DNA of 64,000 bases, taken from positions 1 to 64,000 of the forward strand of contig CANFHU010000012.1 in assembly GCA_947446925.1 (NCBI GenBank), in the 5' to 3' direction. The stretch comes from Flavobacteriia bacterium. Its GTDB lineage: Bacteria; Bacteroidota; Bacteroidia; Flavobacteriales_D; Crocinitomicaceae. The stretch's first letter is position 1; each line of letters opens with the position of its first letter. A program made the position numbers and the translations under genes. This document shows, in pieces, positions 8,125 through 35,700 of this stretch. The notes under the pieces are model-generated. The model searched no databases, had not been told where the DNA came from, and was given only the letters and a program-made list of their open reading frames with translations.

Positions 8125-8658
8125 ATGAATTTTGTAGAAGTAAAATTATATTCTATGGAACAGGTAAGACTTATTCGCGTGGGGAGTGCAAGTGATAACG
8201 ATGTAGTAATTAATCATGAGGCAATAAATCCGTATCATTTAGAATTGTTTCAAGATGCACGTGGGAATGTTTTTCTTTCCGATTTAAAAACAGAACTGGG
8301 TACCTTTGTGAATGGACAAAAAGTAAAGGCTTTTTGTGCTTTGTCCATGAAGGATAAAGTGACCATAGCGGGCAAATTCATGTTTGATTGGACAAAGTTG
8401 GTTACTACGATGGATGTTTCTAAAAAAATCGCAACATTACGAAGTAACTTGGTCTATACAGAAAATCTCGAAAATAAAGTAGAGTTACCAAGTTTAGTGG
8501 CCGTTGAGGAGGAATATTTATTGGAGGACGCGCTTTTAGAGGACGCAACTTGGATTCAACGTTGGAATTATTTTTACACACATAATTCTTCTATCGTTCA
8601 TATCTTTGTGTTAAATATCGTCTTGTTTATATTGCTATATATTGCTTTTCTTTCTTAA
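8125..8658 (+). CDS. FHA-domain protein with C-terminal membrane anchor
   Basis: A 177-residue protein. Residues about 10-90 form a forkhead-associated (phosphothreonine-binding) domain: RLIRVGSASDNDVVI, INPYHLEL, LKTELGTFVNGQKV and a final strand FMFDW. The motif Arg-(x)-Gly-(x)-Ser-(x)4-Asp is close to the binding-loop consensus. The C-terminus has one hydrophobic helix (IFVLNIVLFILLYIAFL), so the FHA domain should face the cytoplasm with its tail in the membrane. It lies 75 bp upstream of a PP2C-like gene. This pairing suggests phosphoprotein signalling, but no Ser/Thr kinase is seen nearby. A second ATG at 8155 is an alternative start. Confidence 0.75.
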   Translation: MNFVEVKLYSMEQVRLIRVGSASDNDVVINHEAINPYHLELFQDARGNVFLSDLKTELGTFVNGQKVKAFCALSMKDKVTIAGKFMFDWTKLVTTMDVSKKIATLRSNLVYTENLENKVELPSLVAVEEEYLLEDALLEDATWIQRWNYFYTHNSSIVHIFVLNIVLFILLYIAFLS

Positions 8659-8733
8659 TTTAGCGCTTGGTTTATTTCATGTGTTTATTTGCAAAAATAG
8701 GTCTATTTATACCACTATCAATTTAAGTATAGA

Positions 8734-10131
8734 ATGAAAGTTTCGTATTGTTCAAAAACAGATTTAGGGTTAAAACATCCAATTAATTCGGATGCTTTAG
8801 GGGATAAAAAAACCAAGAACGGACATGTTTTTGTTGTTGCAGATGGAAGTCCTGTAGATGCAAATGGAAGTTTTGCTTCTCGTTTAGCAGTTCAAAGTAT
8901 CCTTGATTTTTTTGAAAAAGAAATTTTTGACAATGTATTTATTGGTATTAATCATGCCTTCCAATTTGCTAACGAACAGGTATATCGTGCTTCCATTTTA
9001 GAGGAAGGTTTAAAAGGGATTTTTGCCAGTGTAGCTGTGGTTTTAGTTCGCGAAGAAGGAGTTTATTATGCACATATTGGAAATGCACGTGTTTATTTAA
9101 AATCAGAAGGTAAGTTACAGCGTTTGACGAATGATCATGGGTATTTGGATGTACAATTATATCCAACAAATGATGTGGATTATTCAAAGCCAGTGGTGAA
9201 GTTGCCTAAAGCATTGGGGAACACCCCAAGTATTTCTCCAACTGTTTGTTTTTCTAAGTTAGATGTAGCTGCAGGGGATGTATTACTCGTTTGTACACAT
9301 GGTATTACCAAAGTTTTGGACGATAATTTCATTAATAGTAAAATAGAATACGCTTCTATCAACGCCAATATTTTAGAATTAGTAGATAGTGCAAAAGGAA
9401 AAAGTGTACCAGAAAATGTTACACTTCAATTAATTGCAGTTACCGAAGGGAATATTCAAAAAAGATTTATTTCAGCTACTAATACACAGAAAAATAATGT
9501 TGTTGATACTCCAACTAGTTCGGAGGGGAAAGTAACACAAGAACAAATAAATCTATTCAATAAAATAACTTTAGATAGAAATAAAACGATCAAAATTGGT
9601 GCTGCAATTATTGCAGTATTTGTTGTGATATGGTTTGTTTTCCGTCAACCGCATGATGATACAGATAAAGTATTGGACGATGCAGGTGAAATTATACAAA
9701 AAGATACTACAAATCAACACCAAGATTTAGAAACGTTGATGGAGTATGAAAAGCCTAAGAAAGCAGAAAAAGAAGAAGAGGAGGAAGAGGAAGAAACGGA
9801 AGAAGAGGTAACGGATGAGGAAGAAACAGCGACCGAATCTAGTGATGAAACAGAGGTAGAGGAGGCGACAACTCCGAAAGAAGAAGCAACTGTTGCACCA
9901 AAAGTTTCTGAGAAAAAAGAAGAGAAGAAAAAAGAGCCAAAGAAGGAAGAAAAGAAGAAAGAAGATAAGAAAGCAAAGTCTGGTAATTCTAAAAGTCATA
10001 CTGTCAAATCAGGTAATACGATCAATGGACTAGCAGCTGAATATGGTGTGAAGCCAGATGCAATACGTAAAGCAAATAACTTATCGGATGACAAAATTGA
10101 GATAGGCCAAAAATTGATTATCCCTCAATAG
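8734..10131 (+). CDS. Membrane-bound PP2C-like (probably degenerate) protein with LysM domain
   Basis: A 465-residue protein in three parts. Residues about 1-230 resemble a PP2C phosphatase: HPINSDA, FVVADGSP, HIGNARVYL and THGITKVLDD. The canonical GDSR motif is GNAR and the canonical SDG metal site is THG, so the second metal-binding Asp is lost and activity is doubtful. A single membrane helix follows (IGAAIIAVFVVIWFVF, near 285-305), then a long Glu/Lys-rich low-complexity stretch (about 345-415), then a C-terminal LysM domain (SHTVKSGNTINGLA to IGQKLIIPQ). The layout predicts a cytoplasmic signalling domain joined across the membrane to a peptidoglycan-binding module. It pairs with the FHA gene upstream. 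A hairpin terminator follows. Confidence 0.75.
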   Translation: MKVSYCSKTDLGLKHPINSDALGDKKTKNGHVFVVADGSPVDANGSFASRLAVQSILDFFEKEIFDNVFIGINHAFQFANEQVYRASILEEGLKGIFASVAVVLVREEGVYYAHIGNARVYLKSEGKLQRLTNDHGYLDVQLYPTNDVDYSKPVVKLPKALGNTPSISPTVCFSKLDVAAGDVLLVCTHGITKVLDDNFINSKIEYASINANILELVDSAKGKSVPENVTLQLIAVTEGNIQKRFISATNTQKNNVVDTPTSSEGKVTQEQINLFNKITLDRNKTIKIGAAIIAVFVVIWFVFRQPHDDTDKVLDDAGEIIQKDTTNQHQDLETLMEYEKPKKAEKEEEEEEEETEEEVTDEEETATESSDETEVEEATTPKEEATVAPKVSEKKEEKKKEPKKEEKKKEDKKAKSGNSKSHTVKSGNTINGLAAEYGVKPDAIRKANNLSDDKIEIGQKLIIPQ

Positions 10132-10152: not shown

Positions 10153-10180
10153 AAAAAGACCTTTTTTTAAGGTCTTTTTT
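10153..10180 (+). terminator. Intrinsic terminator after the PP2C-LysM gene
   Basis: Perfect 11-bp stem AAAAAGACCTT / AAGGTCTTTTT with a 5-nt T loop, ending in a T run. It closes the FHA/PP2C pair 22 bp after the stop codon. Confidence 0.85.
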
Positions 10181-10205: not shown

Positions 10206-11891
10206 ATGAAAAACACTTCTTTATTCCGAAAAAAAAAGGTAGAAGAGATACTCCTGCAAGTAAAGGCGGATGAAGAGGCAGGAAAACAATTAGGGAGACA
10301 TTTAACCTTAAAAGATTTAATTTCTTTTGGTATTGCAGCGATTATCGGTGCAGGGATTTTTAGTACCATTGGAAATGCTAGTCATGCTGGTGGTCCAGCA
10401 GTTATATTTTTGTTCTTATTTACGGCTTTAGCGTGTGGTTTTTCTGCATTTGCCTATGCTGAATTTGCTTCTATTATACCAGTTTCAGGGAGTGCATATA
10501 CTTATTCCTATGTTGCATTTGGGGAAATTGTCGCATGGATTATTGGATGGTCTTTAATCATGGAATATGCGATTGGAAATATTACGGTAGCAATTTCGTG
10601 GAGTGATTATTTTACAAGTTTACTTGCTAGTGGAGGTCTTGAACTCCCTGCTTGGATGCAGATGGATTATTTGTCTGCCCATGCAGGATTTGAGAGAGTG
10701 ACTGTTTTATTGAAGCAAGGAATACCACTACGTTCCTTAGATCTGCATGCGCAAACTGCATATAAGGCCTGGTTGGGTGCGCCTCGCATTGGTAGTTTTC
10801 ATTTTGTTGCAGATTTACCTGCGTTAGGTATTATTGTACTGATTACTTGGTTGGTTTATCGCGGAGTGCGTGAAACCAAACGTGCTAGTAATGTAATGGT
10901 ATTCATTAAATTATTTGTGATTTTATTGGTGCTAATAGTTGGTGCGTTTTATGTAGATGTCAAACATTGGCAGCCTTTTGCTCCAGAAAGTATCGGTGGG
11001 GTATTAAAAGGAGTATCGGCAGTCTTTTTTGCATATATTGGTTTTGATGCTATATCTACTACTGCAGAGGAATGTAAGAACCCGAAACGCGATTTACCAA
11101 AAGCAATGATGTGGTCCATCATCATTTGTACGGTTGTATATATTTTAATAGCGCTTGTGTTGACTGGTATGGTTGACTATAAGTTATTGAATGTAGGAGA
11201 TCCTCTATCCTTTGTTTTTGAAAAATTACATGTCACATGGATAGCAGGGATAATTGCAGTCAGTGCAGTCATTGCGATGGCGAGCGTATTGTTAGTATTT
11301 CAAATGGGTCAACCGCGCATATGGATGAGCATGAGTCGGGATGGATTATTACCTAAACGTTTTGCAAAGATTCATCCAACATATAAAACGCCAAGTTTTG
11401 CTACCATTGTTGTGGGGTTTGTGGTTGCTATTCCGGCGCTATTTATGAATTTGAAGATGGTGACGGATCTTTGTAGTATTGGGACACTCTTTGCATTTGT
11501 ATTGGTATGTGGTGGAGTTTTAGTAATGCAGACGCTTAAAGGTGGACCTCAAGCAAGTTTCAAAACACCTTATTTGAATGCAAAGTATGTTATGCCAGTT
11601 GTCGTTTTAATAATTGCAGGAATGATCTATACATTCGGAATAATGAATGTTACCATTTCGCAATGGGTGTTTATTGGAGTTACTTTACTGTTTAGTGGAT
11701 TAGCTTTCAAATATAATTTTTCTACAATTCCCTTGTTGGGGTTGTTAAGTTGTTTTTACATGATGACAGAGTTAGACGCCTCTAATTGGATTGGTTTTGG
11801 TGTTTGGTTGGTGATTGGATTGGTGGTGTATTTTGGGTATAGTAGAAAAAGGAGTTTACTTGGGAAAGTAGAGGGGGATGGAGAGAATTAA
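10206..11891 (+). CDS. APC-superfamily amino-acid permease (CAT type)
   Basis: A 561-residue integral membrane protein with about 12-14 hydrophobic helices. Helix 1 has the APC substrate-binding glycine motif IGAGIFSTIG, followed by GGPAVIFLFLFTALACG and AYAEFASIIPVSGSAYTYSY, typical of cationic amino-acid (CAT/YfnA-like) transporters. A long loop (about residues 140-195) sits between helices 4 and 5. The mid-region has FFAYIGFDAISTTAEECKNP, a strong CAT family signature. It probably imports an amino acid in symport with protons; specificity is not readable. It starts 74 bp after the PP2C gene but behind a terminator, so it is likely transcribed separately. Confidence 0.88.
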   Translation: MKNTSLFRKKKVEEILLQVKADEEAGKQLGRHLTLKDLISFGIAAIIGAGIFSTIGNASHAGGPAVIFLFLFTALACGFSAFAYAEFASIIPVSGSAYTYSYVAFGEIVAWIIGWSLIMEYAIGNITVAISWSDYFTSLLASGGLELPAWMQMDYLSAHAGFERVTVLLKQGIPLRSLDLHAQTAYKAWLGAPRIGSFHFVADLPALGIIVLITWLVYRGVRETKRASNVMVFIKLFVILLVLIVGAFYVDVKHWQPFAPESIGGVLKGVSAVFFAYIGFDAISTTAEECKNPKRDLPKAMMWSIIICTVVYILIALVLTGMVDYKLLNVGDPLSFVFEKLHVTWIAGIIAVSAVIAMASVLLVFQMGQPRIWMSMSRDGLLPKRFAKIHPTYKTPSFATIVVGFVVAIPALFMNLKMVTDLCSIGTLFAFVLVCGGVLVMQTLKGGPQASFKTPYLNAKYVMPVVVLIIAGMIYTFGIMNVTISQWVFIGVTLLFSGLAFKYNFSTIPLLGLLSCFYMMTELDASNWIGFGVWLVIGLVVYFGYSRKRSLLGKVEGDGEN

Positions 11892-15212: not shown

Positions 15213-15254
15213 GAATTATGAATTATGAATTATGAATTATGAATTATGAATTAT
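15213..15254. repeat. Heptamer tandem repeat (GAATTAT)6
   Basis: Six uninterrupted copies of GAATTAT. The array runs from just upstream of the 14662-15204 gene into the last codons and stop of the nucleotidyltransferase gene at 15244. Confidence 0.95.
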
Positions 15255-15576
15255 GGTTTTCTTTCGTGTAAAATATTTGGCCTACACGGTCTATATGTTC
15301 TTGTAACGAAGGAGCGTTCAGTTTCGTATAAATAGAGATATCAAATAAATAAGGAGTGTTCAAATCGTCAATTTCCCAGTCGAGTTTAGAGAGCGTGTCC
15401 CGAGTTACTTTTTCTCCAAAGAGGGTGATGTCGATGTCCGAACCTGGGCGGTAATTTCCTTTTGCACGCGAACCATAAATAACTACTTTTTCAATTTCAG
15501 GATGTAAGCGAAATACCCCATTGATTTTATCAATCGTCGTTTGTTTTAGTCCGAATTTCAAAGATTCCGTTTCCAT
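15244..15576 (-). CDS. MNT-type nucleotidyltransferase (MntA-like)
   Basis: A 110-residue minimal nucleotidyltransferase. The active-site motif GSRAKGNYRPGSDIDI matches GS-x10-DxD exactly, followed by ITLFGE and a later acidic strand (YLFDISIY). In the MntA/HepT type of toxin-antitoxin system this protein AMPylates a Tyr of the HEPN partner and so neutralises its RNase activity. Its start codon overlaps the stop of the adjacent HEPN gene (TAATG), indicating translational coupling. The last residues are encoded by the heptamer repeat, so the C-terminus may vary. A non-toxin role, as first proposed for HI0073, cannot be excluded. Confidence 0.82.
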   Translation of the reverse strand: METESLKFGLKQTTIDKINGVFRLHPEIEKVVIYGSRAKGNYRPGSDIDITLFGEKVTRDTLSKLDWEIDDLNTPYLFDISIYTKLNAPSLQEHIDRVGQIFYTKENHNS

Positions 15577-15974
15577 TAGAGATATGTTTTCATTTTTGAA
15601 TAAAAATTTTCAAAAGCAGAAATATGATTATTTAAAATATTGTTAACTACTATTTCTGCATTTTCATGATCGTAGGTATGAACAGTGCGATTACGGTCAT
15701 TTACCATATTCATCCATGCATCTCCATTGTCGATTATGCCCATCTTAAATGCTTGTCGAATTGAATCTTTTGAACCATATATTTCATTATTCCCTTTTTC
15801 TAGAAGAAAATCTTTCATGACATTCCATCCAAGTTCATAGGTGTATTCAAAAGACTTGATTAAGCCTTGTTCTTCTCGAATATTTAATTTTTCAACGCTA
15901 GTAAAATTACGAAGTACAATTAGAGCTTTCTCATAATTCATAAAACGTTGTTTCCAGCGAATATCTTGTTCCAT
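15576..15974 (-). CDS. HEPN-domain protein (HI0074/HepT-like), partner of the MNT
   Basis: A 132-residue all-helical protein of the 'nucleotidyltransferase substrate-binding' (HI0074) family: DIRWKQRFMNYEKAL, FEYTYELGWNVMKDFL and DRNRTVHTYDH. The last segment contains R-x4-H-x-Y, the HEPN RNase motif together with the Tyr that MntA-type enzymes AMPylate. It probably forms a toxin-antitoxin pair with the nucleotidyltransferase that follows it (TAATG overlap). A second, closely similar HEPN gene lies 33 bp upstream. Confidence 0.8.
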   Translation of the reverse strand: MEQDIRWKQRFMNYEKALIVLRNFTSVEKLNIREEQGLIKSFEYTYELGWNVMKDFLLEKGNNEIYGSKDSIRQAFKMGIIDNGDAWMNMVNDRNRTVHTYDHENAEIVVNNILNNHISAFENFYSKMKTYL

Positions 15975-16007
15975 TTGTTTTAATTAAAGTTAGTTATCCA
16001 ATAGGTT

Positions 16008-16409
16008 TTAGAGGTATGTTTTCATTTTTCTTTCAAACGAAAGGAGTGCTGGTAGGTAGTGTTTAATTATCTTTTCGTATTCTTCTTCCAAAATAGATGC
16101 TTGATACGTATGTACAGTGTTATTTCTACTTTCAATCATTTCCATCCACACTTCGCCATTTTCAAGGATATTTTTATTAAACGCTTCCCGAGTAGCAGTT
16201 CGAGAACCTGTAATTTGATTTAAACCCTCATATTCCAGATAATCTTTTAAAACTTTCCAGGCTAATTCATGGGTAAATTCAAATCGTTGAATAATACCTG
16301 CTTTAATGATGTTTTCTTCCGTATTTGCAAATTTATCTACTCCTTCAACTAATTGTTTTAAGGCATTTTCAAAATTCATAAAACGTTGTTTCCAGCGAAT
16401 ATCCTCCAT
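16008..16409 (-). CDS. Second HEPN-domain protein (HI0074/HepT-like)
   Basis: 133 residues, clearly paralogous to the next gene: both begin with DIRWKQRFMN and share FEFTHELAWKVLKDYL and SRNNTVHTYQ, again with R-x4-H-x-Y intact. The first 30 bp of the two genes are almost identical at DNA level, consistent with tandem duplication. This copy has no nucleotidyltransferase of its own and may share the one at 15244. It lies directly downstream of the DUF3050 gene (16-bp gap). Confidence 0.78.
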   Translation of the reverse strand: MEDIRWKQRFMNFENALKQLVEGVDKFANTEENIIKAGIIQRFEFTHELAWKVLKDYLEYEGLNQITGSRTATREAFNKNILENGEVWMEMIESRNNTVHTYQASILEEEYEKIIKHYLPALLSFERKMKTYL

Positions 16410-20503: not shown

Positions 20504-23500
20504 TTAATTATTCGCAATTGTCACTTTTACACGATCTACTACTACCTTGTTTTGGTTACTTATCTCTACTATATACAAACCTGTCACCGCGTTTGGTAAA
20601 TGGATTTCATAACTATTATTTCCGACGAATGCATCATAGGTATCTGAAAATATTACCTGACCAATTTCGTTTAGTAAATGTAGTGTGTAACTTGCATTGT
20701 TTTGTGCTTTTAAATCGACATGGATCAATTGATTCGTAACAGGGTTTGGGTATACATTTACGTCTATTTCAGAAGGAATTTGTGCTACGACTAATTTCAC
20801 GGATACAATGTCTGAATACGCAAACTTACCATCAAAATCGGTTTGTTTCAAACGGTAGTAAGACACTCCGGTATATGGATTCGCATCGTAGCCAAAGTAG
20901 TATTGATTCACTTTACTGTTTCCGGATCCTTTTTTCGTAAATACTTTCTCAAAAGTTTTACCATCCAAAGATCTTTCTACGGTAAAGAAATCATTGTTTT
21001 CTTCGGAACCTGTTTCCCAATCTAAACGTACCTTTTTGCCTTCTGTTTTTGCGGTGAAATTAATTAAAGTAATTGGTAATGCGCTTGGATCTTCTACACT
21101 GAAAGGGGAGAAGGAGGTGATAGAATCTCGGGAAATAGTGTAAAAGTCTCCTGAACTATTTGTTGCAGAAACAGGTGTAAATCCTGTGTCCCAAGAAGTA
21201 CCGTTCCAATGACCTATGTAACAATTTGTTCGAGTAAAATCTGGTAATTCTCGTGCAATATTCCATTGGAGTGTCATAGAAACGGTATAACCAGCACCAT
21301 TTGCACTCACATACCAACTTCTGTCGATACAATGATTTGTTTTAGGTGAACCTGAAGTTCCATTAGACAAACGACCTTGACCGATATAAACACTAATATC
21401 ACGAGTAGTTCCTGTATTGTTTAATGTGCATGGTGTGTAGTCATTTGAATTAGCAGAAAATCCAATCGGGAATACCTGTTTTCCTACAACTGCACTACTA
21501 CCTAAATCTCGTTGTATTACTTTACCAGATCCATTCGTGACGATAAAATTAGCATCATCATACCCACTAAATATCCCATTACTTCCTATTGTTAAATCGT
21601 AATTGTTTAATGTGAGTTTGGAGCCTCCATTAAATACAAAGTTTCCGTTAACCGTTATCGCACCACCCGCAATTTTTGAGGATGCATTGCTTATTGTTAC
21701 GTTACCATAGTTTTTTGCTGGTATTACTTGTGTACCAGTCGGAGCATTAAAATGTATGGTTGCCCCCACATCTATCGTGCCTAAAGTTGGTATAGTTGTA
21801 CTCGTAATCGTTAGTGTCATATTATTAGATACATCAATTGTACCACTTACTGGATTCGTATTAGTTATGGTAAAGTTTGTCGGATGAATTCCATCACCTA
21901 CGATAATTTTACTACTTGGATCTAGTGACCAACTAGCGTCGTTCGTTGGGGTAGTGGTAGTGTTGTGTAGAATGTAGAATGTTGTTCCGCCTACCGTCAT
22001 ACTAGATGGATGTGTTCCTGTTCCGTCAGGATTTGAACCCCAATTAGACATACTCGACATTGGTGAAATACCATTATAATAAAAAGTGGTAACGTCTGAA
22101 TGAATAGTTATATCTGTTGTAGCGCTTACTTGCGGACACCCACCACTCGTTGGTATGGTATACGTTATGGTGTAGTTACCAGGTGTACTTGAACTTGGAG
22201 TAACGGATCCAGTTGTAATGTCGATACTTAAACCAGTGGTAGAAGAATATAAACCGCCACTTGTACCGCTTAAACTAACAGTTTGACCCGCACCTTGGTT
22301 GGTGGTAAATGGGGAACCGTTATAGGTAATAGAAGCGGTTGGTAATGTTGTTACGGTGACATTTGTTTCTGAAGAAGTAGCACTACATCCACTTGCATTG
22401 GTAACAATTACGGAGTAATTACCTGTAGCGGTAACATTGATGCTTGAAGTTGTAGCGCCATTACTCCAAAGATAGGATGCACCTGCAGATGCGTTTAAGG
22501 TTACGCTTCCTCCACTACAAAAAGTAGTTGCTCCTCCTGCTGAAATGGTTGCTGTAGGTAATGGATTTACCGTTACAACCGCACTACCTGTTTTATCACT
22601 AGCGTTAGCAGTACAATTTGCATCGCTTAAAGCAGATACAGTATATGTTTTAGAAGATGATGGACTCACCGTAAAAGTATATGGACTGCTTGTAATTCCA
22701 GAAACGGATACAGGGGTTGTACCATCCGTATAGGTAAGGCTCCATGGTTGAGTACCCGTCAAAGCGATACTGATATAAGAAGAAGTAGCACCATTACAAA
22801 TAGTTTGATCTCCGGAAATCAGAGAAGTAGGACGCGCATTTACAGTAACCGTTGCACTACCTGTTTTATCACCAGCGTTAGCAGTACAATTTGCATCGCT
22901 TAAAGCAGATACAGTATATGTTTTAGATGACGAAGGACTCACCGTAAAAGTATATGGGCTGGATGTAATACCAGTAACAGAAACTGGTGTTGTACCATCG
23001 GTATAGGTAAGACTCCAAGGTTGAGAACCAGTCAAAGCAATACTGATATTAGAAGAAGTAGCACCATTACAAATACTTTGTGTTCCAGAAATTACGGATG
23101 TTGGTCCAGCTTTAGGAACTATTTCTCCAGTACTTAGAATCATTGCACCACACGAATAATTGTTAAATGTAATTTGACTCAGTTGTGTTGAATTCAAACC
23201 TGTCCCATCTGAGCCAATAAAAATTTGACGTCCACTTGTGTTTGCTGTACCTGCAACACCATTCCAATTGTATATTGTGATGGTGGAAGCATCCCATGTT
23301 TGACCACTACTTGCTTTAAAGTAGTATTTGTTAGCACCACTTGTTCCTAGGTTAATTGTAGTATTCACATCTAAATCTAACTGACCAGCAGAACTTGCTG
23401 TTGCCGTACCAGAACCTAAATCAAACAATCCTAAATTCAAAGTTACACCTGAAGTTGTGGTGGTTTGAATTACACCCGCTGATGCACTCACTGGTAAAGC

Positions 23501-26500
23501 ATTGGCAACGCCTAGGGAGATTGAACCGTTGGATAAAATTGTTTTACCCGTAAAGGTATTCACTCCAGAAAGCATTAAAGTACCAGCACCAGTTTTTGTT
23601 AAATTGCCACTTCCAGCAACAACACCTCCATAAGATAAGGTTTTTGTGCTTGACACATCTATTGATCCATTGGAAGTGCCTATTGTAATACCCCTATTTA
23701 AGGATAACGTAAAATCATTCGTAATTCCAAGAGTTCCACCATTTAAAGTTATGCTAGAAGCAGTTGTCGAACCAGGAACAGCACCTAAATTACCATCGGA
23801 AGAAATATTTAATGTTCCAGCATTTATTGTAGTATTTCCAGTATATGTGTTTGCGCCTGATAAGGTAAGTGTCTCGTTACCTATTTTTGTTAATGCATAC
23901 CCACCGCTTATTATTCCGCTTAATGTCAGACCTCCTGTTCCGGAAGAAGCCAAAGTAGCATTTCCTGTTAGGGTAATCGGATTTGCAAAAGTGGTTAATG
24001 AACTACCCGTGCTATTGAAAAGTGCACCTGAATTAGAAACTCCTGAACCTTGGATTTCAAAAGAACCCCAAGAATCTACGGTTTTGTTGTTTATATCTAA
24101 TGCTCCTCCATTTTCTATAACTACTTTATTTCCAGATGCTCCTGTCCATGTTGCGCCTGCTTGATATTGATGACCTTGTTGAATTATAAATATTTGACTT
24201 GTAGTTGTAAAGTCAGATGGATTATTTGAAGTTGTATATCTAGTTGAATTATAGTAATTATTTCCGCCACCTGTACCTGAACCTGAGGAAGAACTAACCT
24301 TCATAGATGTGTTTGAGTAAATTGCTACAACATTCCCCCAAAAAGTACCATCACTTTTATTTATAGTATCACCAACTGAGAAGTCTGAAAGAAAATTTGT
24401 ATTCGTTCCAGTTATTGTTGTTGATGATTTTGAAATTGTACCTGCTAGATTAGTTGCACACGAACCGGTTCGACAACTGTAATTGCTTCCAGACCTGTAT
24501 CTAGTCCAATTTGAAGTTGATTGAGAAGGAGTGTTAGAAGTAGAAGTTTTAGAATACCAAATTGATCCTGAAATACTTTCATATGCTCCTATATATTGAT
24601 TTGCATTAGGTCTAGAGATTTTAATTAAATCATTCTGAATATTAATATTTGCATCATTGTATAAATTCTTTCCTTTTTGAGATAAATAGGTTGATGATGT
24701 AGCTTGCCCATTGATATCTAGATAGATTGTATTTGATTGACCTGTTCCGTTAGTACCACTTGAATAGTTTGTAATTAAATTTCCAGTTCCATTTGTTCTT
24801 GACAAGGTAACTGTAGAACCTTCCCAGTTTGCAAAGGAGATAGAAGTAGTGTTAAATGTTATTGCATTAGCTGTTCCTCCTGTAGCCTGATAATAATTAT
24901 TATCATGATATATAGTTCCATTTGTTGGTACATATAAATTTTGACAATCTGTTCCACTTTTTATAATAAATATATTATTATATAAATAATACGTTCCGGT
25001 TGATAGGTTTAAATTCCTTAAATTGCTAGAAGTGCTTGATCTTATTTGATTATATAGAAATGTATTGCTGTAAATATAAGATGTCAAAGCACCAATTGAG
25101 ACTAAATGACCAGTATATGTTGCATATAAATTTGGCGTACTAATGAAGTTGTTATAAATCTTAAGTGTACCTGATGTGATTCCATCTAGAGAGAAAATTT
25201 TTGATTGAAGATCAGTACCGTTATGACCACTATTTGATAAGTTAGTAAACTTATTATGATTTATTGTAATTGTTAAGTTACTATTTGTTGAACTTACTAA
25301 ATAAGAAGATCCTTTTATTACACCAGAGCTAACTCCATTTACAATGTTATCTACAATATTTTCAGAAATTTGGATTGTTGTAGATGAACACATAATTGCT
25401 AAAGCACTAACATTTGTGTTTCCTGATCCTGTAGATTCATTACATTGTATTTTTTTTATTTCGTTGCCTTTAAGTAATGTTTGTGATGAGCCAGTTAAAT
25501 TTTGACCTAAATAAATACCATACATTATATTATCACCTGAAGCATTATTAATTACAGTACTATATTCACCATTACATTTAGAAGAAGTGCCACCAATATA
25601 ATTTTGATTTATTTGATATCCATCACCGGAATCAACAAAAATAAATGCATAATTATTAGTTCCAGCAGCTGAACCTCCAATTGAAGTAGTAAGATATATA
25701 CTATTACCTTGTATCATCCATGCATCCGAATTTGTATTAATATAAATTCCATCATCTCCAAAATCCCTCACCTCACAATTCGAAATCGTATTCGACGCAT
25801 TCACATACCCTGCCGACCCAGTCGATTCTATCGCATATTTCTGCGTACCACTATTCGGAAAAATGATACAATTATCAATGGTATTATTACTGTTTCCTAC
25901 CGAACTTGAAGTTCCAAAAAGTACCGTCGCTACAGTGGATGTACCAGCACTTTTGATATTCGTGTATTGTATCGTGTTGTTGGTTGCGCCCTCGTTAAAA
26001 CGAATAACATTACCGCTCGTTGTTGTATTATAAATTGTTAGAAAGTTCGTTGTCCCTGAACCACCTAATCTACCATCTATCGTTACATAATCTGCTCCAT
26101 TCATATCAATCAGCGCACTAGTAGAACTTCCGTCCATCGTAATTGCAGCGGTAACATTGCTTTTTGGTCTAATCGTTAACGTCGCTGAAGCGGAAGTATT
26201 AAGCCCGTAAAAGTTTATCGGATACGTTTCGTTTACTTCTTGTGTCGTACGATACGTTTCATCCAATTCCAAAATGACATTCCCTGAAATACATTCTTTT
26301 ATCGCAGCTAATGCTGCAGTAAGTGTAGTCCAATTCCCTCCAGATGCAAGTGTTCCAATCGTATATGTGCCACTGTACGTTGTTCCACATGTTCCACTTG
26401 TATATTCATAACAGCCAATGTCTGGATTCCCTTTACGCAAATTGGAAGCATAATCATCAATAGGAGGGGAGTTTGTAGTTGTACCGGCGTTGATACATGG

Positions 26501-27598
26501 GGAACTGCTTTGAAGCGTCATGTTCGTAGTACTTGTCACAAGTGGATTGGTGTTAGCTGCCAAACAATTTGTTGTTACATCTGCTGTGATTATACCATAA
26601 CAACAATTGATTAATGATGTGGTAGAAGACCCTGCATCATAAAAGTCTTTGCCAGTATTACTGTAAAGTATAGTATTGTAGATGTTGGCAATATATGCTG
26701 CATAAATACCATTTGTGCTACCTGCAGGACTTGTATTATTATAAACTGTTGAATTTTTAACAGTCAAAGTAGTATTGGCATTACCATAAATAACCCCATT
26801 GTGGCTTGAAGAATTAGATGTGTTTCCGTAAAATTGGCTGTTAATAATAATTAAATCTGAATTAGTACTACCATTAACTGCGATAGCTGAGCCGTTGTTT
26901 ATACCTGCACAGGAATTATTAGCGAATTTACATCTGGTTATATTTAGATTAATTTCTCCGGATGTCGTAGATGCATAGATAGCACCACCACTCCCTGATC
27001 CTGTAATGTCACAATTTTGGAAAGTACAGTTTGTAATGGTTGTGTTAAAAGTACTTGTTGTTGAAAAAAGAGTGATTGCAGCTCCATTTGATGAAGCAAC
27101 ATCACAATTGTCAAATAAACAGTTTGTTAAAATTAAACCATCAACCCCATCTGTATTTTGATTTATCCCTCTGGTATAATCTTTTATAGTGATTTTATCA
27201 ATCGTAATGTTGTCGTTGGTTGAATTAGTAATACCCATCCAAAGGCTTGTGTTATCTGAGTCAAAGATACTCGTTGGTGTTCCGCTAGACAATGCTGCCC
27301 CTTGAATCGTGAAACTTTCATCATCAGAACCAATGGCAATTCCTTTCTCTGTATACGTCCCTGCCGCCACATAAATAATATCCCCACTTCCCAAATTATA
27401 GGTGTCAAAAATACTTTGTATTGTTGCTTTTGGAGTACCAACTGCGGTTCCGTTATTTCCAACTGTCCCATTCGTCGCAACATAATAATTCGTTGCAAAA
27501 CTTTTTCCCGTGAAAAAACAAATAAATAGTAACATTAAAATGCCAATCTTCCCAATTCTAACGCCGTTTTTGTACTTTGTTTCTACCATTCCTTCCAT
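20504..27598 (-). CDS. Giant T9SS-secreted surface protein 1 (beta-helix, autotransporter-type and Ig-like repeats)
   Basis: 2364 residues. Signal peptide (hydrophobic IGILMLLFICFFTG, cleavage near KSFA). Residues about 37-1000 are Asn/Ser/Thr-rich parallel beta-helix repeats (TIQSIFDTYNLGSGDIIYVA at the start). Residues about 1240-1375 carry autotransporter-associated strand repeats (LSGANTYTGNTTINAGTLNI). Residues about 1495-1680 hold two near-identical Ig/PKD-like repeats (SICNGATSS). Further Gly/Ser/Thr-rich modules follow, and the C-terminus is a type A T9SS sorting domain (VNVYPNPV, GLYIVEIS). It should be exported by Sec and T9SS and attached to the surface as an adhesin. The last 200 residues are nearly identical to those of the other giant protein. 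The start may be either of two Met codons three apart. Confidence 0.85.
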   Translation of the reverse strand: MEGMVETKYKNGVRIGKIGILMLLFICFFTGKSFATNYYVATNGTVGNNGTAVGTPKATIQSIFDTYNLGSGDIIYVAAGTYTEKGIAIGSDDESFTIQGAALSSGTPTSIFDSDNTSLWMGITNSTNDNITIDKITIKDYTRGINQNTDGVDGLILTNCLFDNCDVASSNGAAITLFSTTSTFNTTITNCTFQNCDITGSGSGGAIYASTTSGEINLNITRCKFANNSCAGINNGSAIAVNGSTNSDLIIINSQFYGNTSNSSSHNGVIYGNANTTLTVKNSTVYNNTSPAGSTNGIYAAYIANIYNTILYSNTGKDFYDAGSSTTSLINCCYGIITADVTTNCLAANTNPLVTSTTNMTLQSSSPCINAGTTTNSPPIDDYASNLRKGNPDIGCYEYTSGTCGTTYSGTYTIGTLASGGNWTTLTAALAAIKECISGNVILELDETYRTTQEVNETYPINFYGLNTSASATLTIRPKSNVTAAITMDGSSTSALIDMNGADYVTIDGRLGGSGTTNFLTIYNTTTSGNVIRFNEGATNNTIQYTNIKSAGTSTVATVLFGTSSSVGNSNNTIDNCIIFPNSGTQKYAIESTGSAGYVNASNTISNCEVRDFGDDGIYINTNSDAWMIQGNSIYLTTSIGGSAAGTNNYAFIFVDSGDGYQINQNYIGGTSSKCNGEYSTVINNASGDNIMYGIYLGQNLTGSSQTLLKGNEIKKIQCNESTGSGNTNVSALAIMCSSTTIQISENIVDNIVNGVSSGVIKGSSYLVSSTNSNLTITINHNKFTNLSNSGHNGTDLQSKIFSLDGITSGTLKIYNNFISTPNLYATYTGHLVSIGALTSYIYSNTFLYNQIRSSTSSNLRNLNLSTGTYYLYNNIFIIKSGTDCQNLYVPTNGTIYHDNNYYQATGGTANAITFNTTSISFANWEGSTVTLSRTNGTGNLITNYSSGTNGTGQSNTIYLDINGQATSSTYLSQKGKNLYNDANINIQNDLIKISRPNANQYIGAYESISGSIWYSKTSTSNTPSQSTSNWTRYRSGSNYSCRTGSCATNLAGTISKSSTTITGTNTNFLSDFSVGDTINKSDGTFWGNVVAIYSNTSMKVSSSSGSGTGGGNNYYNSTRYTTSNNPSDFTTTSQIFIIQQGHQYQAGATWTGASGNKVVIENGGALDINNKTVDSWGSFEIQGSGVSNSGALFNSTGSSLTTFANPITLTGNATLASSGTGGLTLSGIISGGYALTKIGNETLTLSGANTYTGNTTINAGTLNISSDGNLGAVPGSTTASSITLNGGTLGITNDFTLSLNRGITIGTSNGSIDVSSTKTLSYGGVVAGSGNLTKTGAGTLMLSGVNTFTGKTILSNGSISLGVANALPVSASAGVIQTTTTSGVTLNLGLFDLGSGTATASSAGQLDLDVNTTINLGTSGANKYYFKASSGQTWDASTITIYNWNGVAGTANTSGRQIFIGSDGTGLNSTQLSQITFNNYSCGAMILSTGEIVPKAGPTSVISGTQSICNGATSSNISIALTGSQPWSLTYTDGTTPVSVTGITSSPYTFTVSPSSSKTYTVSALSDANCTANAGDKTGSATVTVNARPTSLISGDQTICNGATSSYISIALTGTQPWSLTYTDGTTPVSVSGITSSPYTFTVSPSSSKTYTVSALSDANCTANASDKTGSAVVTVNPLPTATISAGGATTFCSGGSVTLNASAGASYLWSNGATTSSINVTATGNYSVIVTNASGCSATSSETNVTVTTLPTASITYNGSPFTTNQGAGQTVSLSGTSGGLYSSTTGLSIDITTGSVTPSSSTPGNYTITYTIPTSGGCPQVSATTDITIHSDVTTFYYNGISPMSSMSNWGSNPDGTGTHPSSMTVGGTTFYILHNTTTTPTNDASWSLDPSSKIIVGDGIHPTNFTITNTNPVSGTIDVSNNMTLTITSTTIPTLGTIDVGATIHFNAPTGTQVIPAKNYGNVTISNASSKIAGGAITVNGNFVFNGGSKLTLNNYDLTIGSNGIFSGYDDANFIVTNGSGKVIQRDLGSSAVVGKQVFPIGFSANSNDYTPCTLNNTGTTRDISVYIGQGRLSNGTSGSPKTNHCIDRSWYVSANGAGYTVSMTLQWNIARELPDFTRTNCYIGHWNGTSWDTGFTPVSATNSSGDFYTISRDSITSFSPFSVEDPSALPITLINFTAKTEGKKVRLDWETGSEENNDFFTVERSLDGKTFEKVFTKKGSGNSKVNQYYFGYDANPYTGVSYYRLKQTDFDGKFAYSDIVSVKLVVAQIPSEIDVNVYPNPVTNQLIHVDLKAQNNASYTLHLLNEIGQVIFSDTYDAFVGNNSYEIHLPNAVTGLYIVEISNQNKVVVDRVKVTIANN

Positions 27599-29136: not shown

Positions 29137-29765
29137 GACGTAAGGTGTTCGTTTATAAAAACAACACTTCTAAAAAATCCTTTCCTCCAACGTGTTAACC
29201 TAGGTTAATATCTTATTAACAATGCCATCGTATCCCAAAAACCACTAATTCTATGATTATGAGTAAACTACTGTTTTTATAACAAACAATAGAAACTTCT
29301 AACTGTGAACAAAGTCTACATATTTAGCTTGCGTATGCAAACTATTTTTCGTAATATTATGTATATTTGTGTGTTAGATTTGTTGGTACTGCTTTCGCTT
29401 TTCGTGAAATTGCAAGCAACCTACCACACATCGAAACGTTTGATAAGAAAGACCGCGCAAACGAGCGTTGTCACTTTCCAAACGAAGGCTTCGAGGTAAA
29501 AGATAGATACGTAGCATGTTTACGAATGTTAATAGTTAGTTTTGAAAGTCTAGTTTAGACTGCTATTTTAAAATTAATTAATTGGTAAATAAGTGTTTAG
29601 TTGTTTTAGTGATTCGTTTTACTGCGTAGTTTTTGAAAAATTAAATTATACGTAGTATAACGTATAAAATTACGGTTTATTACAGTGTAAGTCGTTAAAA
29701 AAAAATAAAAGAATGTTAAATCTTCTAGTAGGTTGAAAAACAGACTAGAAACAACGATAAAAAAG
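29137..29765. promoter_or_regulatory. Upstream region of giant gene 2
   Basis: About 630 bp without a credible gene. It holds a plus-strand TATATTTG (29362-29369) that fits the -7 box but lacks a good -33 box, and the right copy of the 18-bp inverted site at 29544-29561. Two short ORFs here (29305-29499 and 29367-29558) overlap in different frames and show no domain or codon pattern; they are not supported. Confidence 0.5.
29544..29561 (+). promoter_or_regulatory. Right copy of inverted site flanking the recombinase
   Basis: GAAAGTCTAGTTTAGACT, an exact 18-base inverted copy of the site at 27787-27804. It lies about 205 bp upstream of the ATG chosen for giant gene 2. The palindromic right arm is incomplete here (GCT in place of TTC). 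Confidence 0.65.
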
Positions 29766-32700
29766 ATGAAAAATTTTACGAAATTTTTAGGAGGGAGTAG
29801 AAGTGGAGCACTAAGATTGTTGTTGGTGCTTGTGGGGATGGTTTGGGGAGTTGGGGCTTGGGGGGCTACATATTATTCCAAATCAGGAACAGCACCAAAT
29901 GTAAATACAAACTGGAATAGTAATAGAGACGGAACAAGTGGATCGACACCTGGTGGTTTTACTTCAGGTGATATATTTGTTATTCAAGGTTCTGCAAGTG
30001 CTCCAGGAGGAACAGCACATTCATTAACTACAACGGGAACCTGGTCGATTTCAGGTACAAGCTCAAAATTATGGATTGAAGGAGGAGCAACACTAACGGC
30101 TAGTCATTTAATTACTTTATCATCTTCAACTACTTGGCAAATAGATGCCAATGGAAAATATGTAAATAATCACTCAGGAGATATTTGGGCTAATACATTT
30201 ACTGGAATAGAATCATTCGATGCTTCAAGTACATTTGAATTTCAAGATTTACAAACTACTTACAATACTGGAACAAGTATGGCTTTAGAAGCATTAATGA
30301 CATCATCTTCTTGTAATTTTGGTAATATTTTATGGAATATTATTGCATCCAACAATACTAATTATAGAATTCGGCTATCTGGTGCTTCAACAAAAACAAT
30401 AAATGGCAATCTTACAATTGCTAGGACAGGAACATCTGGATCTTTATTTCTATTTGATAAAAGTACAGCAGGTAAATTAACAATTTCTGGAAATTTCATA
30501 CAGACTGGAGGTACTTTTTATGAAATTTATACTGGTGCAGGCACAAGTGGAACAATATTAGAAGTACTTGGTGATTTTTCACTTTCGGGTGGAATTTTTG
30601 ATTTAAATAATACTCCAGGTTCATATTCAGGTTCACTTTATATTGGTGGTAATTTTTTAATGACTTCAGGAACTTTACGAAATTCATCAAATACAACTTC
30701 AAACTGTGCTATCTATTTTACAAAATCAGGAACACAAACTTTTACCCAATCTGCAGGCACATTTACCACAACTTATATCCCTTTTACTGTAAATAGTGGC
30801 TCTTATCTTAAATTAGCATCAAATTTTAGTTTGTCAAATTCATTAACTGTATTAAGTGGTGGTTCTTTAGATATACCTAATCCATATTATACTACCGGAG
30901 CAGGCTCAACGATATTAAATTCAGGATCAAAATTGTATATTGGTCATGCTAGTGGTATTTATTCTTCTACAGCGACGGGTGCTGTTCAAACTACCACACG
31001 AACATTTAGTAATACTTATTTTGAATATAATGGTACAGCTGCACAAGTAACGGGTACAGGTTTACCTTCAATTCTTACAGGTACTTTAAAAATAAATAAT
31101 TCAGAAACAATTACATCTTCAAGCACAGGGGTGACCTTATCTCAAGCAACAACTATTTCAACAGGGGCATTAACACTAACATCGGGTATATTAACAACTT
31201 CAACCTTATTAACGATTACAAATACTGCAACTTCAGCAATTTCTGGTGGTTCATCAGCGTCTTACATTAATGGACCTGTTAAATGGAGTCTCAATAATTC
31301 AACAGGGGGATATATTTTTCCAGTAGGTAAGAGTGGAAAGTATTATCCATTTACAATTACAGCAGCAGCAGCAACTTCGCCTATTTTTCAAATTGAAGCA
31401 TATTCTTCTGGATCAGGAGGATCGATAACAGGTGGTACTGTTTCGACTACTGAACACTGGAAACTAATTGAGTCAGCAGGTACTACTGTGAATGGGATTA
31501 CCCCAAAATTGGAAAGTCCTGATTTTTCTTCCACGACTGGTCAAGTTGGAATATCTTCTACTGCTACATTGAATGGAAGTTATACTAGTTTGGGTGGTAC
31601 TGTAAGTGGTAGTTCAGTAACTGCAACATTATCATCTAGTTCTTTATCTGGTCTTACTAGGTATTTTGCTATAGTAGACGGTGCAAAAATATATTATTCG
31701 AAGAATGCAGCAGGAGCAGGGGCTGCCGCTCAAACCCTTGGCAATTGGAATAGTGACGCAACTGGTGCTGGAGGAGGTGTAGCACCTACAGATTTTACCT
31801 CTGATGGGTATAGTTTTGTCATACTCTCCGGTCATTCATACAAAGCAACTGCTTCATGGACAGGAAATGCGGGTGGTTATGTACAGGTAAATTCAGGGGG
31901 GGCTTTAGATCTAAATGCACAAACTATTTCAACATTTGGAACCGTAAAAATTGCTGGAACGGGTGTGAGTAGTTCAGGAGCATTATTTTCTTCATCTGCA
32001 TCAGCTTCCACACTTTCTTTACCAATTACTTTAACTGCAGATGCAACAGTTGGTTTTAGTAGTACTGGTGCAATTACATTTAGTGGAGTTATTGGCGGTG
32101 CATATAAATTAACTAAAACTGGTACACCTGTATTAACTCTATCTGGAGCAAATACATATTCAGGAGGTTTTACTTTGTCTGCTGGTACATTAAATATAGA
32201 TAATGATGCTGCTTTAGGAACAGGAACTTTCACTATAAGCGGAGGTACAGTGGATGCAATTACTGCAGCACGAAATATAACGAATGCGATGTCAGTTGGA
32301 GGGTCATTTACTTTTACAGGAACACAAAATTTATCTCAATCTTCAGGAGCTATTACTTTAACGGCAACACCAACGATTACAATTTCTGCAAAAATTCTTT
32401 CCCTTGGAGGAAATATTGGAGGTGCTTTTGGTATAGTACAGGCAGGTAATGGAACATTTACACTATCAGGAACCAATACATTTAGTGGCGGTTTTTCCTA
32501 CTCAAGTGCTACAGCTACGGGAACAACTAATATAAAAAGTTCTTCAGCTCTTGGGTCAGGTACCTTAACGGTTAATTCAAGTTCTTCATCGGCAAATCTA
32601 ATAGATAATAATTCAGGAAGTATAATTACTATTACGAATCCAATTTTAATTTCTAATACTTATCTAAATTTTGTTGGAACAAACAGTCTTAGTCAAACTA

Positions 32701-35700
32701 CAGGAGCAATTACTTTGTCCTCTTCAACAACTATTAATACAACTGCCAGTACATTATCTTTAACTGGAGTTATTGGTGAGTCAGGAGGTGCTAGGTCAAT
32801 TACTAAATCAGGAGGTTCTGGTATATTGTTATTAGCAGGTAATAGTACTTTTTCTGGAGGAGTCTCATGGACAACTACACAATCAGGGCGAATTATTATC
32901 AATAATAATAACGCATTGGGTACAGGTACTTTTACAATAACTGGAACAACTTATGGAACTGCTAATGCGAATTCAATCGATAATACTAGTGGAAGTATAA
33001 TAACGATTCCAAATGCTATAACTATATCTGGGAAGTATGCGTTTATAGGTTCTTATTCAATGGTGTTTTCAGGAACTGTAACAATTAGCACTACTGCTTT
33101 AAACCAAACAATTGTTGCAAATTCATTAACTATAAGTGGAGTATTAGCTGGAACAAGCGTTTCACTTGTAAAAGATGGAGTCGGTACTATGATATTAACA
33201 AACAATAATACGCAAACTGGTTCCACAAGTGTAGTTTCAGGTGTTTTAAATGTTCAGCATGCAAATGGTTTAGGATTAGCTGGAGTTACAGTTAGTAGTG
33301 GAGCCGCTCTTCAATTACAAGGTGGTGTTTCTATGGCCTCTGAAACTTTGAGTTTGTCAGGAACAGGAGTATCTTCGGATGGTGCGTTAAGAAGTGTTAC
33401 TGGAGCTAATACTTGGCAAGGATCAATTACATTGGCTGCTGCGTCTAGAATTAATTGTGATGCTGGTTCATTAACTATCTCTGGAACAACAACAAATTCG
33501 ACCTTTGATTTAACATTAGGAGGTTCTAGCTCTATAATTGTTTCAGGTGTGATAGGAAATGGGGCAGGAAATATAGTAAAAGATGGTACAGGATCATTGA
33601 CAATGTCTGCTGCTCATACTTACACTGGTTTAACAACAGTTAACAATGGTACTTTAAAATTAGGCGTTTCTTCTGCTGTTAGTACATCTGGTCCTTTGGG
33701 TACCTCTGCTACAGGTACAATTGTAGCTAGTGGTGGTTCATTAGATTTTAATGGCTTTTCGTTAACTAGTAGTTCTACTGAACCTATCACAATTAACGGT
33801 TCTGGTTATGGATCAATTGGAGCAATTACAAATGGAAGTAGCACAGGTTCTTCATGTGTTGGAACGATAAATTTAGCAGCTTCCTCAATTGTTCAATCAA
33901 CTTCAGGAAGTCTTACTTTTACAGGTAATGTTAATTTAAATAATTCATTAACACTTGATTGTTATAACGACATTACATTTAATACAGGTGTTATATCAGG
34001 CGCAGGAGGCATAATTAAAAGCAATTCACTAGCAAATATTACTCTTTCTGGTACAAATACTTTTACTGGTGGTGTTATTTTAAATGCAGGGATATTAAAA
34101 ATAGATAATAATTCAGCTTTAGGTACAGGTGCTTTAACAATTAATGGAGGTTTAATTGATGCTTTATCTTCTTCTAGAACTATTACAAATGCAATTTTAA
34201 TCAAAGCATCTTTTACATATGTAGGTTCCTCTTATAATTTAATTCAGAATACTGGATCTATAAGTTTATTTGCTTCTCCTACTATAACAATCTCCGGCAA
34301 TACACTAAGTTTAAATGGTGTAATTGATGAAGGAACTATTGAAACCTATACCTCAGGCATAAGTGATACTTGGACTTGTCCATCTGGTGTTTCTTCAGTA
34401 ACAGTTCATTGTTGGGGAGGTGGAGGTGGAGGGTCTGCTGCTTATGGAAATAGTGGTAAAGCTGGTGGTGCTGGTGGTACTTATTCATCGAGTTCAATTT
34501 CTGTAACTGCTGGCAATACTTATAATTTTACCATTGGTGATGGTGGTTCTGCTGGTACATACAATAATAATAATGCAATTTATGTTGAGGCATCAAGAGG
34601 AGGAGATACGTACTTTGGAAATACAAATGCAGGTAGTTCTTCAGGAGCTACGGTTATTGCAACTGGTGGTGGTTATGGTACTAGTGGAAATGTTGCTGGT
34701 ACTAGTTCAACTTCCAGTAATGTTGGTACAACTACATATTCTGGAGGAAATGGTTACACGGGTGGATCTAATAATCCTTGCGATCATTCTGGTGGTTGCC
34801 AAACAGGTGGAGGAGGAGGTGGTGGTGCCGGTAGCGGTAGTGCTGGTACAACTGCTTGTTTAGGAACCGGCGGGACAGGAACATATCCTGGAGGAAATGG
34901 AGGTCAAGGTAATTGTCAAGGTGCAGGTAATACGTATACATCAGTTTTTGCTCCAGGTGGTGGTGGTTCTGGTGCTAGTGCAGGTGCTAGTTCAAGTAAT
35001 TCTGGTGGTGTCGGTGCACCTGGTAAATTAATTATTGCTTACACAGTTTCAATTAAGTCTATAACTAAAAATGGTGTTGGAACATTATCTCTAGGGGGGG
35101 CTAATTTATATGGTGGAACAACAACTTTAAATGCAGGTACTTTAACTATTGGAGCTAATAATGCTATACCTGTTGCAGCAACTGGTGGAGGAGTAGTCTT
35201 AAATGGTGGTACTTTAAATGCTGGAAGCTATACCGTTGGTTCAAGCACTACAAATATGGGTACATTAACATTAGGAGGTACAGCTACTTTAGCACTTGGT
35301 ACAGGTACTTTGTATTTTGCTAATTCTACAAGTACAACTTGGTCAGGTTCGATGACTATCACAGGTTTTGTTTCAACTGCTGTAAATACTGGAGGTACAA
35401 CTGGAGGTAAGCTATTTGTAAACTACCAATCCGGAGGGGGGTGTAGTAATTGTGGTTTAAATTCTACGCAATTGGGATTATGCTCATTCAATACTGCTTT
35501 GATTGGAGGTGTTGCTGCTACTTATTCTGCAACTCAGATTGCATCTGGTGAGATTGTTCCAATAAGCGTAACAATTACGTTAGCATCAAATACGATTTCA
35601 TCAGCAAGTAGTTGTGCTTCCTCAACGAAAGTACCTATTCAAAGTTTTAGTTTAGCTGTTTCTGGTGGTTCTGGTAATTTAACAAATGTTGGTTTTACTA

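What the first reader, a model, noticed from the sequence alone, without database searches (positions are those of the whole stretch)
8125..10131. FHA protein paired with a trans-membrane pseudo-PP2C carrying a LysM domain
Domain order is PP2C-like (metal-site motifs changed to GNAR and THG), membrane helix, Glu/Lys-rich linker, LysM. The neighbour has an FHA domain and a membrane anchor at its C-terminus. In other bacteria FHA and PP2C domains work with Ser/Thr kinases, but none is seen here. A degenerate phosphatase joined to a peptidoglycan-binding domain could act as a receptor that senses the wall and recruits FHA-bound phosphoproteins.
Basis: partly seen in the sequence, partly recalled or inferred. 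Interest (0 to 1): 0.55.

Follow-up and report, generated by a model that had tools for sequence, protein, structure and literature searches.

The report
Dead phosphatase paired with dead FHA
Two neighbouring bacterial membrane proteins still look like parts of a phosphate-signalling switch, but the residues needed to bind or remove phosphate are gone, so they are probably kept as a structural link between the inner membrane and the cell wall.

Summary
Window 8125-8658 encodes an FHA protein with a C-terminal membrane helix (conserved start at 8155). Window 8734-10131 encodes PP2C, membrane helix, Glu/Lys-rich linker and LysM. The pair occurs in 13 of 13 genomes of the genus. In all 13, two PP2C metal aspartates (GDSR and SDG) and the phosphate-binding Arg are gone; all 20 related PP2Cs compared keep them. 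Selection is strongly purifying (PP2C-domain dN/dS 0.04-0.07 among close species). The pseudo-PP2Cs form one clade (100/100) beside active PP2Cs; 20 of 22 active loci carry a Hanks kinase, 0 of 13 pseudo loci do. Some active relatives already end in LysM. Best reading: a phospho-signalling module that lost its chemistry and was kept as a phosphorylation-independent, peptidoglycan-tethered complex, analogous to the pseudokinase/FHA pair of type VIIb secretion. Recruitment of phosphoproteins by this FHA is unlikely. The FHA-PP2C contact and the client are inferred.

The parts
8155..8658 (+). Tail-anchored pseudo-FHA gene (the mechanical ORF starts at 8125; conserved start MEQV at 8155)
8173..8367 (+). 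FHA domain; the phosphothreonine Arg and Ser are replaced (13 of 13 genomes)
8581..8655 (+). C-terminal membrane helix of the FHA protein
   Evidence: hydropathy script; helix 145-166 of the 167-aa form in the model; conserved
8734..10131 (+). Pseudo-PP2C, TM, charged linker, LysM gene (465 aa)
8734..9453 (+). PP2C fold, residues 1-240; the GDSR and SDG aspartates and the motif-1 Arg are lost in 13 of 13
9577..9645 (+). Membrane helix, residues 282-304
   Evidence: model; hydropathy
9646..9987 (+). Glu/Lys-rich linker, residues 305-418, mostly low confidence; the first 40 or so residues are well conserved
9997..10125 (+). LysM domain, residues 422-464
10153..10179 (+). Terminator-like hairpin followed by a T run, between PP2C and the permease gene
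   Evidence: fold in script; a comparable hairpin in 10 of 11 loci
10206..11891 (+). APC amino acid permease; next gene downstream in 11 of 11 pseudo loci with downstream sequence; possible client (inferred)

Best explanation
The pair is a retired phospho-signalling module. The PP2C protein sits N-in/C-out in the inner membrane, with its non-catalytic PP2C fold in the cytoplasm and its LysM reaching peptidoglycan through the long charged linker. The tail-anchored FHA lies beside it and no longer reads phosphothreonine. The two most likely form a constitutive, phosphorylation-independent complex, by fold-fold and/or helix-helix contact, that links a cytoplasmic or membrane client to the wall. 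Shown: domains, loss of both active-site signatures, purifying selection, pairing in 13 of 13 genomes, and kinship with an active kinase/PP2C/FHA cluster. Inferred: absence of catalysis, topology, FHA-PP2C contact, wall binding, and the client (possibly the adjacent APC permease).
For: Pair in 13 of 13 genomes. GDSR Asp, SDG Asp and motif-1 Arg kept in 0 of 13 pseudo against 20 of 20 active proteins. FHA Arg and Ser kept in 0 of 13, against 86 (Arg or Lys) and 88 (Ser) of 89 other FHA domains. PP2C-domain dN/dS 0.036-0.067 for the window against six close species. 39 sites newly fixed in the pseudo clade. High-confidence PP2C and LysM folds. The FHA C-terminal helix is highly conserved. 0 of 13 pseudo loci against 20 of 22 active loci have a kinase in the fetched stretch. 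Precedent for a dead enzyme fold bound by dead FHA domains: the YukB FHA region copurifies with the YukC pseudokinase domain (PMC9600267, passages) and EssC FHA domains lack phosphothreonine residues (PMC4925161, passages).
Against: Asp20 and Asp37 are kept in 10 of 13 and the last Asp is Glu in 10 of 13, so a metal could still bind. The FHA Asn is kept in 3 of 13. No interaction was tested. The FHA model is weak. The terminator-like hairpin makes co-transcription with the permease doubtful. LysM binding was not tested, and in two genomes the gene is cut at a contig end before the LysM.
Confidence: 0.5

Rival explanations
1. The PP2C protein is still a phosphatase, or hydrolyses another phospho-substrate, with an altered metal site, acting on targets of the genome's other Hanks kinases.
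For: Asp20 and Asp37 kept in 10 of 13, Glu at the last Asp in 10 of 13; two Hanks-kinase domains over cut-off in the genome; no other PP2C_2 in the genome.
Against: Two metal aspartates and the motif-1 Arg are gone in 13 of 13, and the SDG position holds five different residues; no kinase in the fetched stretch of any of 13 pseudo loci. PMC12002173 (passages) states that all known PPM phosphatases need two or three metal ions.
Confidence: 0.12
2. The pair regulates the adjacent APC permease, as a dedicated accessory complex that holds or gates the transporter relative to the wall.
For: The permease is the next gene in 11 of 11 pseudo loci with downstream sequence; in divergent members a second APC permease and a beta-lactamase-like hydrolase lie upstream. 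FHA-ABC transporters occur in the parent cluster.
Against: A terminator-like hairpin separates PP2C from the permease in 10 of 11 loci; the upstream genes differ between subgroups; neighbours of unrelated function can stay together for long.
Confidence: 0.2
3. The pseudo-PP2C binds and regulates a remaining Hanks kinase or SpoIIE-type phosphatase of the cell in trans, as the PPM pseudophosphatase TAB1 does with TAK1.
For: Pkinase hits in 13 of 13 genomes (over cut-off in 12) and SpoIIE hits in 13 of 13. TAB1 is named a PPM pseudophosphatase in PMC12002173 (passages); its TAK1 role is stated in the abstract of PMC3245275 (listing).
Against: No kinase in the fetched stretch of any of 13 pseudo loci; no direct evidence.
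Confidence: 0.13
4. The genes are decaying leftovers with no function.
For: Active-site drift: the SDG position holds five residues in 13 proteins.
Against: Intact frames wherever the gene is complete and pairing in 13 of 13; PP2C-domain dN/dS 0.036-0.067; 39 newly fixed sites.
Confidence: 0.03

Closest known systems
PPM/PP2C phosphatases of the Stp1/PstP/tPphA type
   Same: Fold and sequence kinship; membrane-anchored forms are known (recalled for PstP)
   Different: Two metal aspartates and the motif-1 Arg lost in 13 of 13
Kinase/PP2C/multi-FHA cluster of sister genera in the same family (L039-L043, L149-L163)
   Same: PP2C-TM protein, some with LysM; short tail-anchored FHA in L040, L156, L157 and L158
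   Different: There the catalytic residues are intact (21 of 22, the other cut) and 20 of 22 loci have a kinase; in the window's genus only the pair remains at the locus
PPM pseudophosphatases TAB1 and PHLPP2 (eukaryotes)
   Same: PPM fold with lost metal ligands (PMC12002173, passages)
   Different: Those are eukaryotic proteins; here bacterial, membrane-anchored, with LysM and an FHA partner
Type VIIb secretion pair YukC/EssB (pseudokinase) and YukB/EssC (FHA)
   Same: Membrane-anchored dead enzyme fold with FHA domains lacking phosphothreonine residues (PMC9600267, PMC4925161, passages)
   Different: Kinase fold instead of PP2C; a secretion ATPase carries the FHA there; no sign of secretion genes beside the window pair
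Mycobacterial FHA-ABC exporter Rv1747 with kinase PknF
   Same: FHA kinship (6cah is the best PDB match of the FHA); FHA-ABC proteins occur in the parent cluster
   Different: Rv1747 forms an operon with an active kinase (abstract of PMC3908365, listing); the window FHA is a separate tail-anchored protein with lost ligand residues

Membership tests
PPM/PP2C protein phosphatase | PP2C fold and sequence family | tested here: met
   PP2C_2 37.3 bits over cut-off 24; Z about 29 to tPphA
PPM/PP2C protein phosphatase | Conserved metal-binding aspartates | tested here: not met
   GDSR Asp and SDG Asp in 0 of 13, DN Asp in 1 of 13
PPM/PP2C protein phosphatase | Phosphatase activity | not testable with these tools
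   Needs an assay
FHA domain, phosphothreonine reader | FHA sequence family | tested here: met
   47.8 bits over cut-off 20.7
FHA domain, phosphothreonine reader | Conserved Arg, Ser and Asn of the phosphothreonine site | tested here: not met
   Arg 0 of 13, Ser 0 of 13, Asn 3 of 13
LysM domain | LysM sequence family | tested here: met
   52.6 bits over cut-off 20.9; pLDDT blocks 85-91
LysM domain | Binding to peptidoglycan | not testable with these tools
   Needs a pull-down
Kinase/PP2C/FHA signalling cluster of sister genera | Hanks kinase in the same locus | tested here: not met
   0 of 13 pseudo loci in the fetched stretches; 20 of 22 active loci
EssB/EssC-like pseudoenzyme-FHA pair (works like) | FHA lacking phosphothreonine residues beside a membrane-anchored dead enzyme fold | tested here: met
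EssB/EssC-like pseudoenzyme-FHA pair (works like) | Direct FHA-pseudoenzyme contact | not testable with these tools
   No multimer prediction or two-hybrid was available
EssB/EssC-like pseudoenzyme-FHA pair (member of) | Pseudokinase fold | tested here: not met
   The fold is PP2C
T3SS YscD cytoplasmic domain (PF16697) | Profile match specific to T3SS | tested here: inconclusive
   36.1 bits over cut-off 33.2, but ordinary FHA proteins of L040 also score on it

The most novel reading that the evidence does not exclude
A bacterial pseudophosphatase receptor: a lineage stripped a Ser/Thr phospho-signalling module of its kinase, its catalysis and its phosphothreonine reader, yet kept the shell as an envelope-spanning, phosphorylation-independent transmitter of cell-wall state from LysM to a cytoplasmic FHA-PP2C complex.
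Probability: 0.3. Interest if true: 0.7.

Novelty: new variant of a known kind. Interest (0 to 1): 0.5.

Why it matters
Pseudokinases are known in bacteria, but I found no report of a bacterial PP2C-type pseudophosphatase: the phrase 'bacterial pseudophosphatase' is in no paper of the library searched, and the listings of the related searches showed eukaryotic cases or other subjects. Loss of chemistry in both partners, with intact sister clusters for comparison, makes the switch from signalling to scaffolding directly testable. The same dead-enzyme plus dead-FHA logic in type VIIb secretion suggests a recurrent route.

Tried and rejected
RNA element between the genes: synonymous sites are unusually quiet at the 3' end of FHA (6 of 24 conserved codons vary, against 60 of 75 mid-gene), but the fold of 7 sequences shows 0 of 54 pairs with a two-sided change and Rfam gives no match near a family threshold. 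The quiet start of PP2C is matched by some other gene starts, which were compared in only 3 genomes, so it may be ordinary.

LysM gained together with the loss of catalysis: not supported, because three active relatives score LysM over cut-off. Among the first eight proteins scanned the six active ones showed none, so my reading of the L039 and L040 tails as LysM-like was not supported by Pfam.

The FHA model was too weak to search for folds. The promoter scan was near the shuffled expectation. In the tally the window reference copy was counted among 'others' (90); I subtracted it to get 89. L163 lacks two of the five PP2C motifs (21 of 22 had all five); it starts at a contig end.

The 22 active loci are all the non-pseudo rows that cover the PP2C domain. 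The two without a kinase are contigs of 4.2 and 3.2 kb. The 20 active sequences leave out those of L160 and L163. The dN/dS values quoted are for six close species; three more distant ones in the same call gave 0.22-0.32 for the PP2C domain, and the three most diverged were not computed.

Full report
What is there. Window 8125-8658 (+) encodes an FHA protein with a C-terminal hydrophobic helix; the conserved start is at 8155. Window 8734-10131 (+) encodes PP2C, TM, Glu/Lys linker and LysM. AlphaFold2 on 13 rows gives PP2C and LysM blocks mostly above 90, a helix at 282-304 and a low-confidence linker. The PP2C part matches tPphA with Foldseek E 4.7e-16 and VIA-align Z about 29 over 211-213 residues at 2.4-2.5 A. 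The FHA model is weak, mean pLDDT 59.4.

Both active sites are degenerate. An HMM alignment to tPphA 2j82 places the residues. Across the 13 pseudo proteins, Asp20 is kept in 10, Asp37 in 10 (Glu in 3), the GDSR Asp in 0 (Asn 11, Ser 2), the SDG Asp in 0 (His 5, Asn 4, Ser 2, Tyr 1, Lys 1), the DN Asp in 1 (Glu 10, Gly 2) and the motif-1 Arg in 0. All 20 active relatives compared keep all six. The roles of these residues (metal ligands, phosphate contact) are recalled. In the FHA, Arg is Ser in 13 of 13, the SRxH Ser is Asn, Ala or Gly in 13 of 13, and the NGT Asn is lost in 10 of 13; His28 and Gly49 are invariant. In 89 other FHA domains, from the active clusters, Arg or Lys is kept in 86, Ser in 88 and Asn in 84. 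The short tail-anchored FHAs there are already drifting: L040, L156 and L157 have Tyr for Asn, and L158 has Ser for Arg and Thr for Ser as well.

It is conserved, not decaying. The pair is in 13 of 13 genomes of the genus. The window against six close species gives PP2C-domain dN/dS 0.036-0.067 with dS 0.54-1.25; three more distant members give 0.22-0.32. In the PP2C domain 36 sites fixed in the active set (19 or more of 20) are not fixed in the pseudo set (10 or fewer of 13), while 39 sites are fixed in the pseudo set (12 or more of 13) to a residue other than the active majority. In 9 of 13 genomes this FHA is the only FHA hit and there is no second PP2C_2. G251 and G254 carry in addition an intact PP2C with a kinase nearby. 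The own genome has two Hanks-kinase domains over cut-off, one with a hydrophobic stretch and one with leucine-rich repeats by my reading, and two SpoIIE-type phosphatase hits.

Where it came from. In 240 genomes of the family, the rows covering the PP2C domain are the 13 pseudo proteins and 22 others. In a tree of the 13, 20 active and 3 outgroup proteins the pseudo proteins form one clade, 100/100, stem 1.89; the tree flags long branches, and its root is for drawing only. Of the 22 others, 21 show all five motifs and one is cut at a contig end. 20 of 22 lie with a Hanks kinase and 21 of 22 with an FHA protein; among 13 pseudo loci none has a kinase in the fetched stretch. In L040 the cluster holds two kinases, an FHA protein with a zinc-ribbon-like start (my reading), a VWA-FHA, an FHA-M48 peptidase, an FHA-ABC exporter and a 140-aa tail-anchored FHA. 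LysM scores over cut-off in active L133, L134 and L140, and below it in L141; the other six of that scan showed none.

Surroundings. In 11 of 11 pseudo loci with downstream sequence the next gene is an APC permease, but 10 of 11 have a terminator-like hairpin with a T run in between, with different stem sequences in different subgroups. In the divergent members a serine hydrolase and a second APC permease lie upstream; the homologues in the window sit at 54847-57422, and the hydrolase there is of the Beta-lactamase2 family.

How it works, most likely. Positive residues before the helix and the acidic stretch after it suggest cytoplasmic PP2C and periplasmic LysM (inference from sequence). The FHA is tail-anchored beside it (inference). 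With no phosphothreonine reader and no catalysis, a phosphorylation-independent complex linking the cytoplasmic face to peptidoglycan is the best reading. The nearest precedent for the logic is type VIIb secretion: EssC FHA domains lack phosphothreonine residues (PMC4925161, passages), and the YukB FHA region copurifies with the YukC pseudokinase domain (PMC9600267, passages). For PPM pseudophosphatases see PHLPP2 and TAB1 (PMC12002173, passages). Against this reading: Asp20, Asp37 and Glu227 could still hold a metal, no interaction has been shown, and the LysM was not tested for binding.

Literature. Searches gave no bacterial PP2C-type pseudophosphatase and no PP2C-TM-LysM protein in the listings that I saw. 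The library is open-access only, and I read passages, not whole papers. In PMC2887360, PMC6213207 and PMC11270862 I searched for terms only.

Origin of the genomes. The 12 named relatives are metagenome-assembled genomes with conflicting taxonomic labels; I did not determine the family name.

Noticed in passing
window 8575-8665: The last 30 codons of the FHA gene vary little at synonymous sites (6 of 24 conserved codons, against 60 of 75 mid-gene, 7 genomes). The stretch holds TATCTTTG, which resembles the Bacteroidota -7 promoter element as I recall it; it may hold an internal promoter for the PP2C gene.
   Followed up: partly
L040 4214-19000 and the related loci L039-L043, L149-L163: A conserved family-wide cluster of Hanks kinases, PP2C, VWA-FHA, FHA-M48 peptidase, an LEA_2-domain protein and an FHA-ABC exporter. 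I found no paper with the terms FHA domain, PP2C, Flavobacteri and kinase together; its function may deserve its own study.
   Followed up: partly
window 15244-16409 (-): One small nucleotidyltransferase-like gene followed by two similar HEPT-like genes, by my reading of the ORFs; it looks like a MNT/HEPT toxin-antitoxin set with a duplicated partner.
   Followed up: no
window 20504-27598 (-) and 29733-41327 (+): Two giant repetitive surface proteins (2364 and 3864 aa) with nearly identical C-terminal ends that look like type IX secretion sorting domains (recalled, not scanned).
   Followed up: no
L048 9301-10587 (-): By my reading a leucine-rich-repeat protein fused to a Hanks kinase domain in the own genome. 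12 of 13 congeneric genomes have a Pkinase hit of similar strength (57-69 bits), but only the own copy was read.
   Followed up: no
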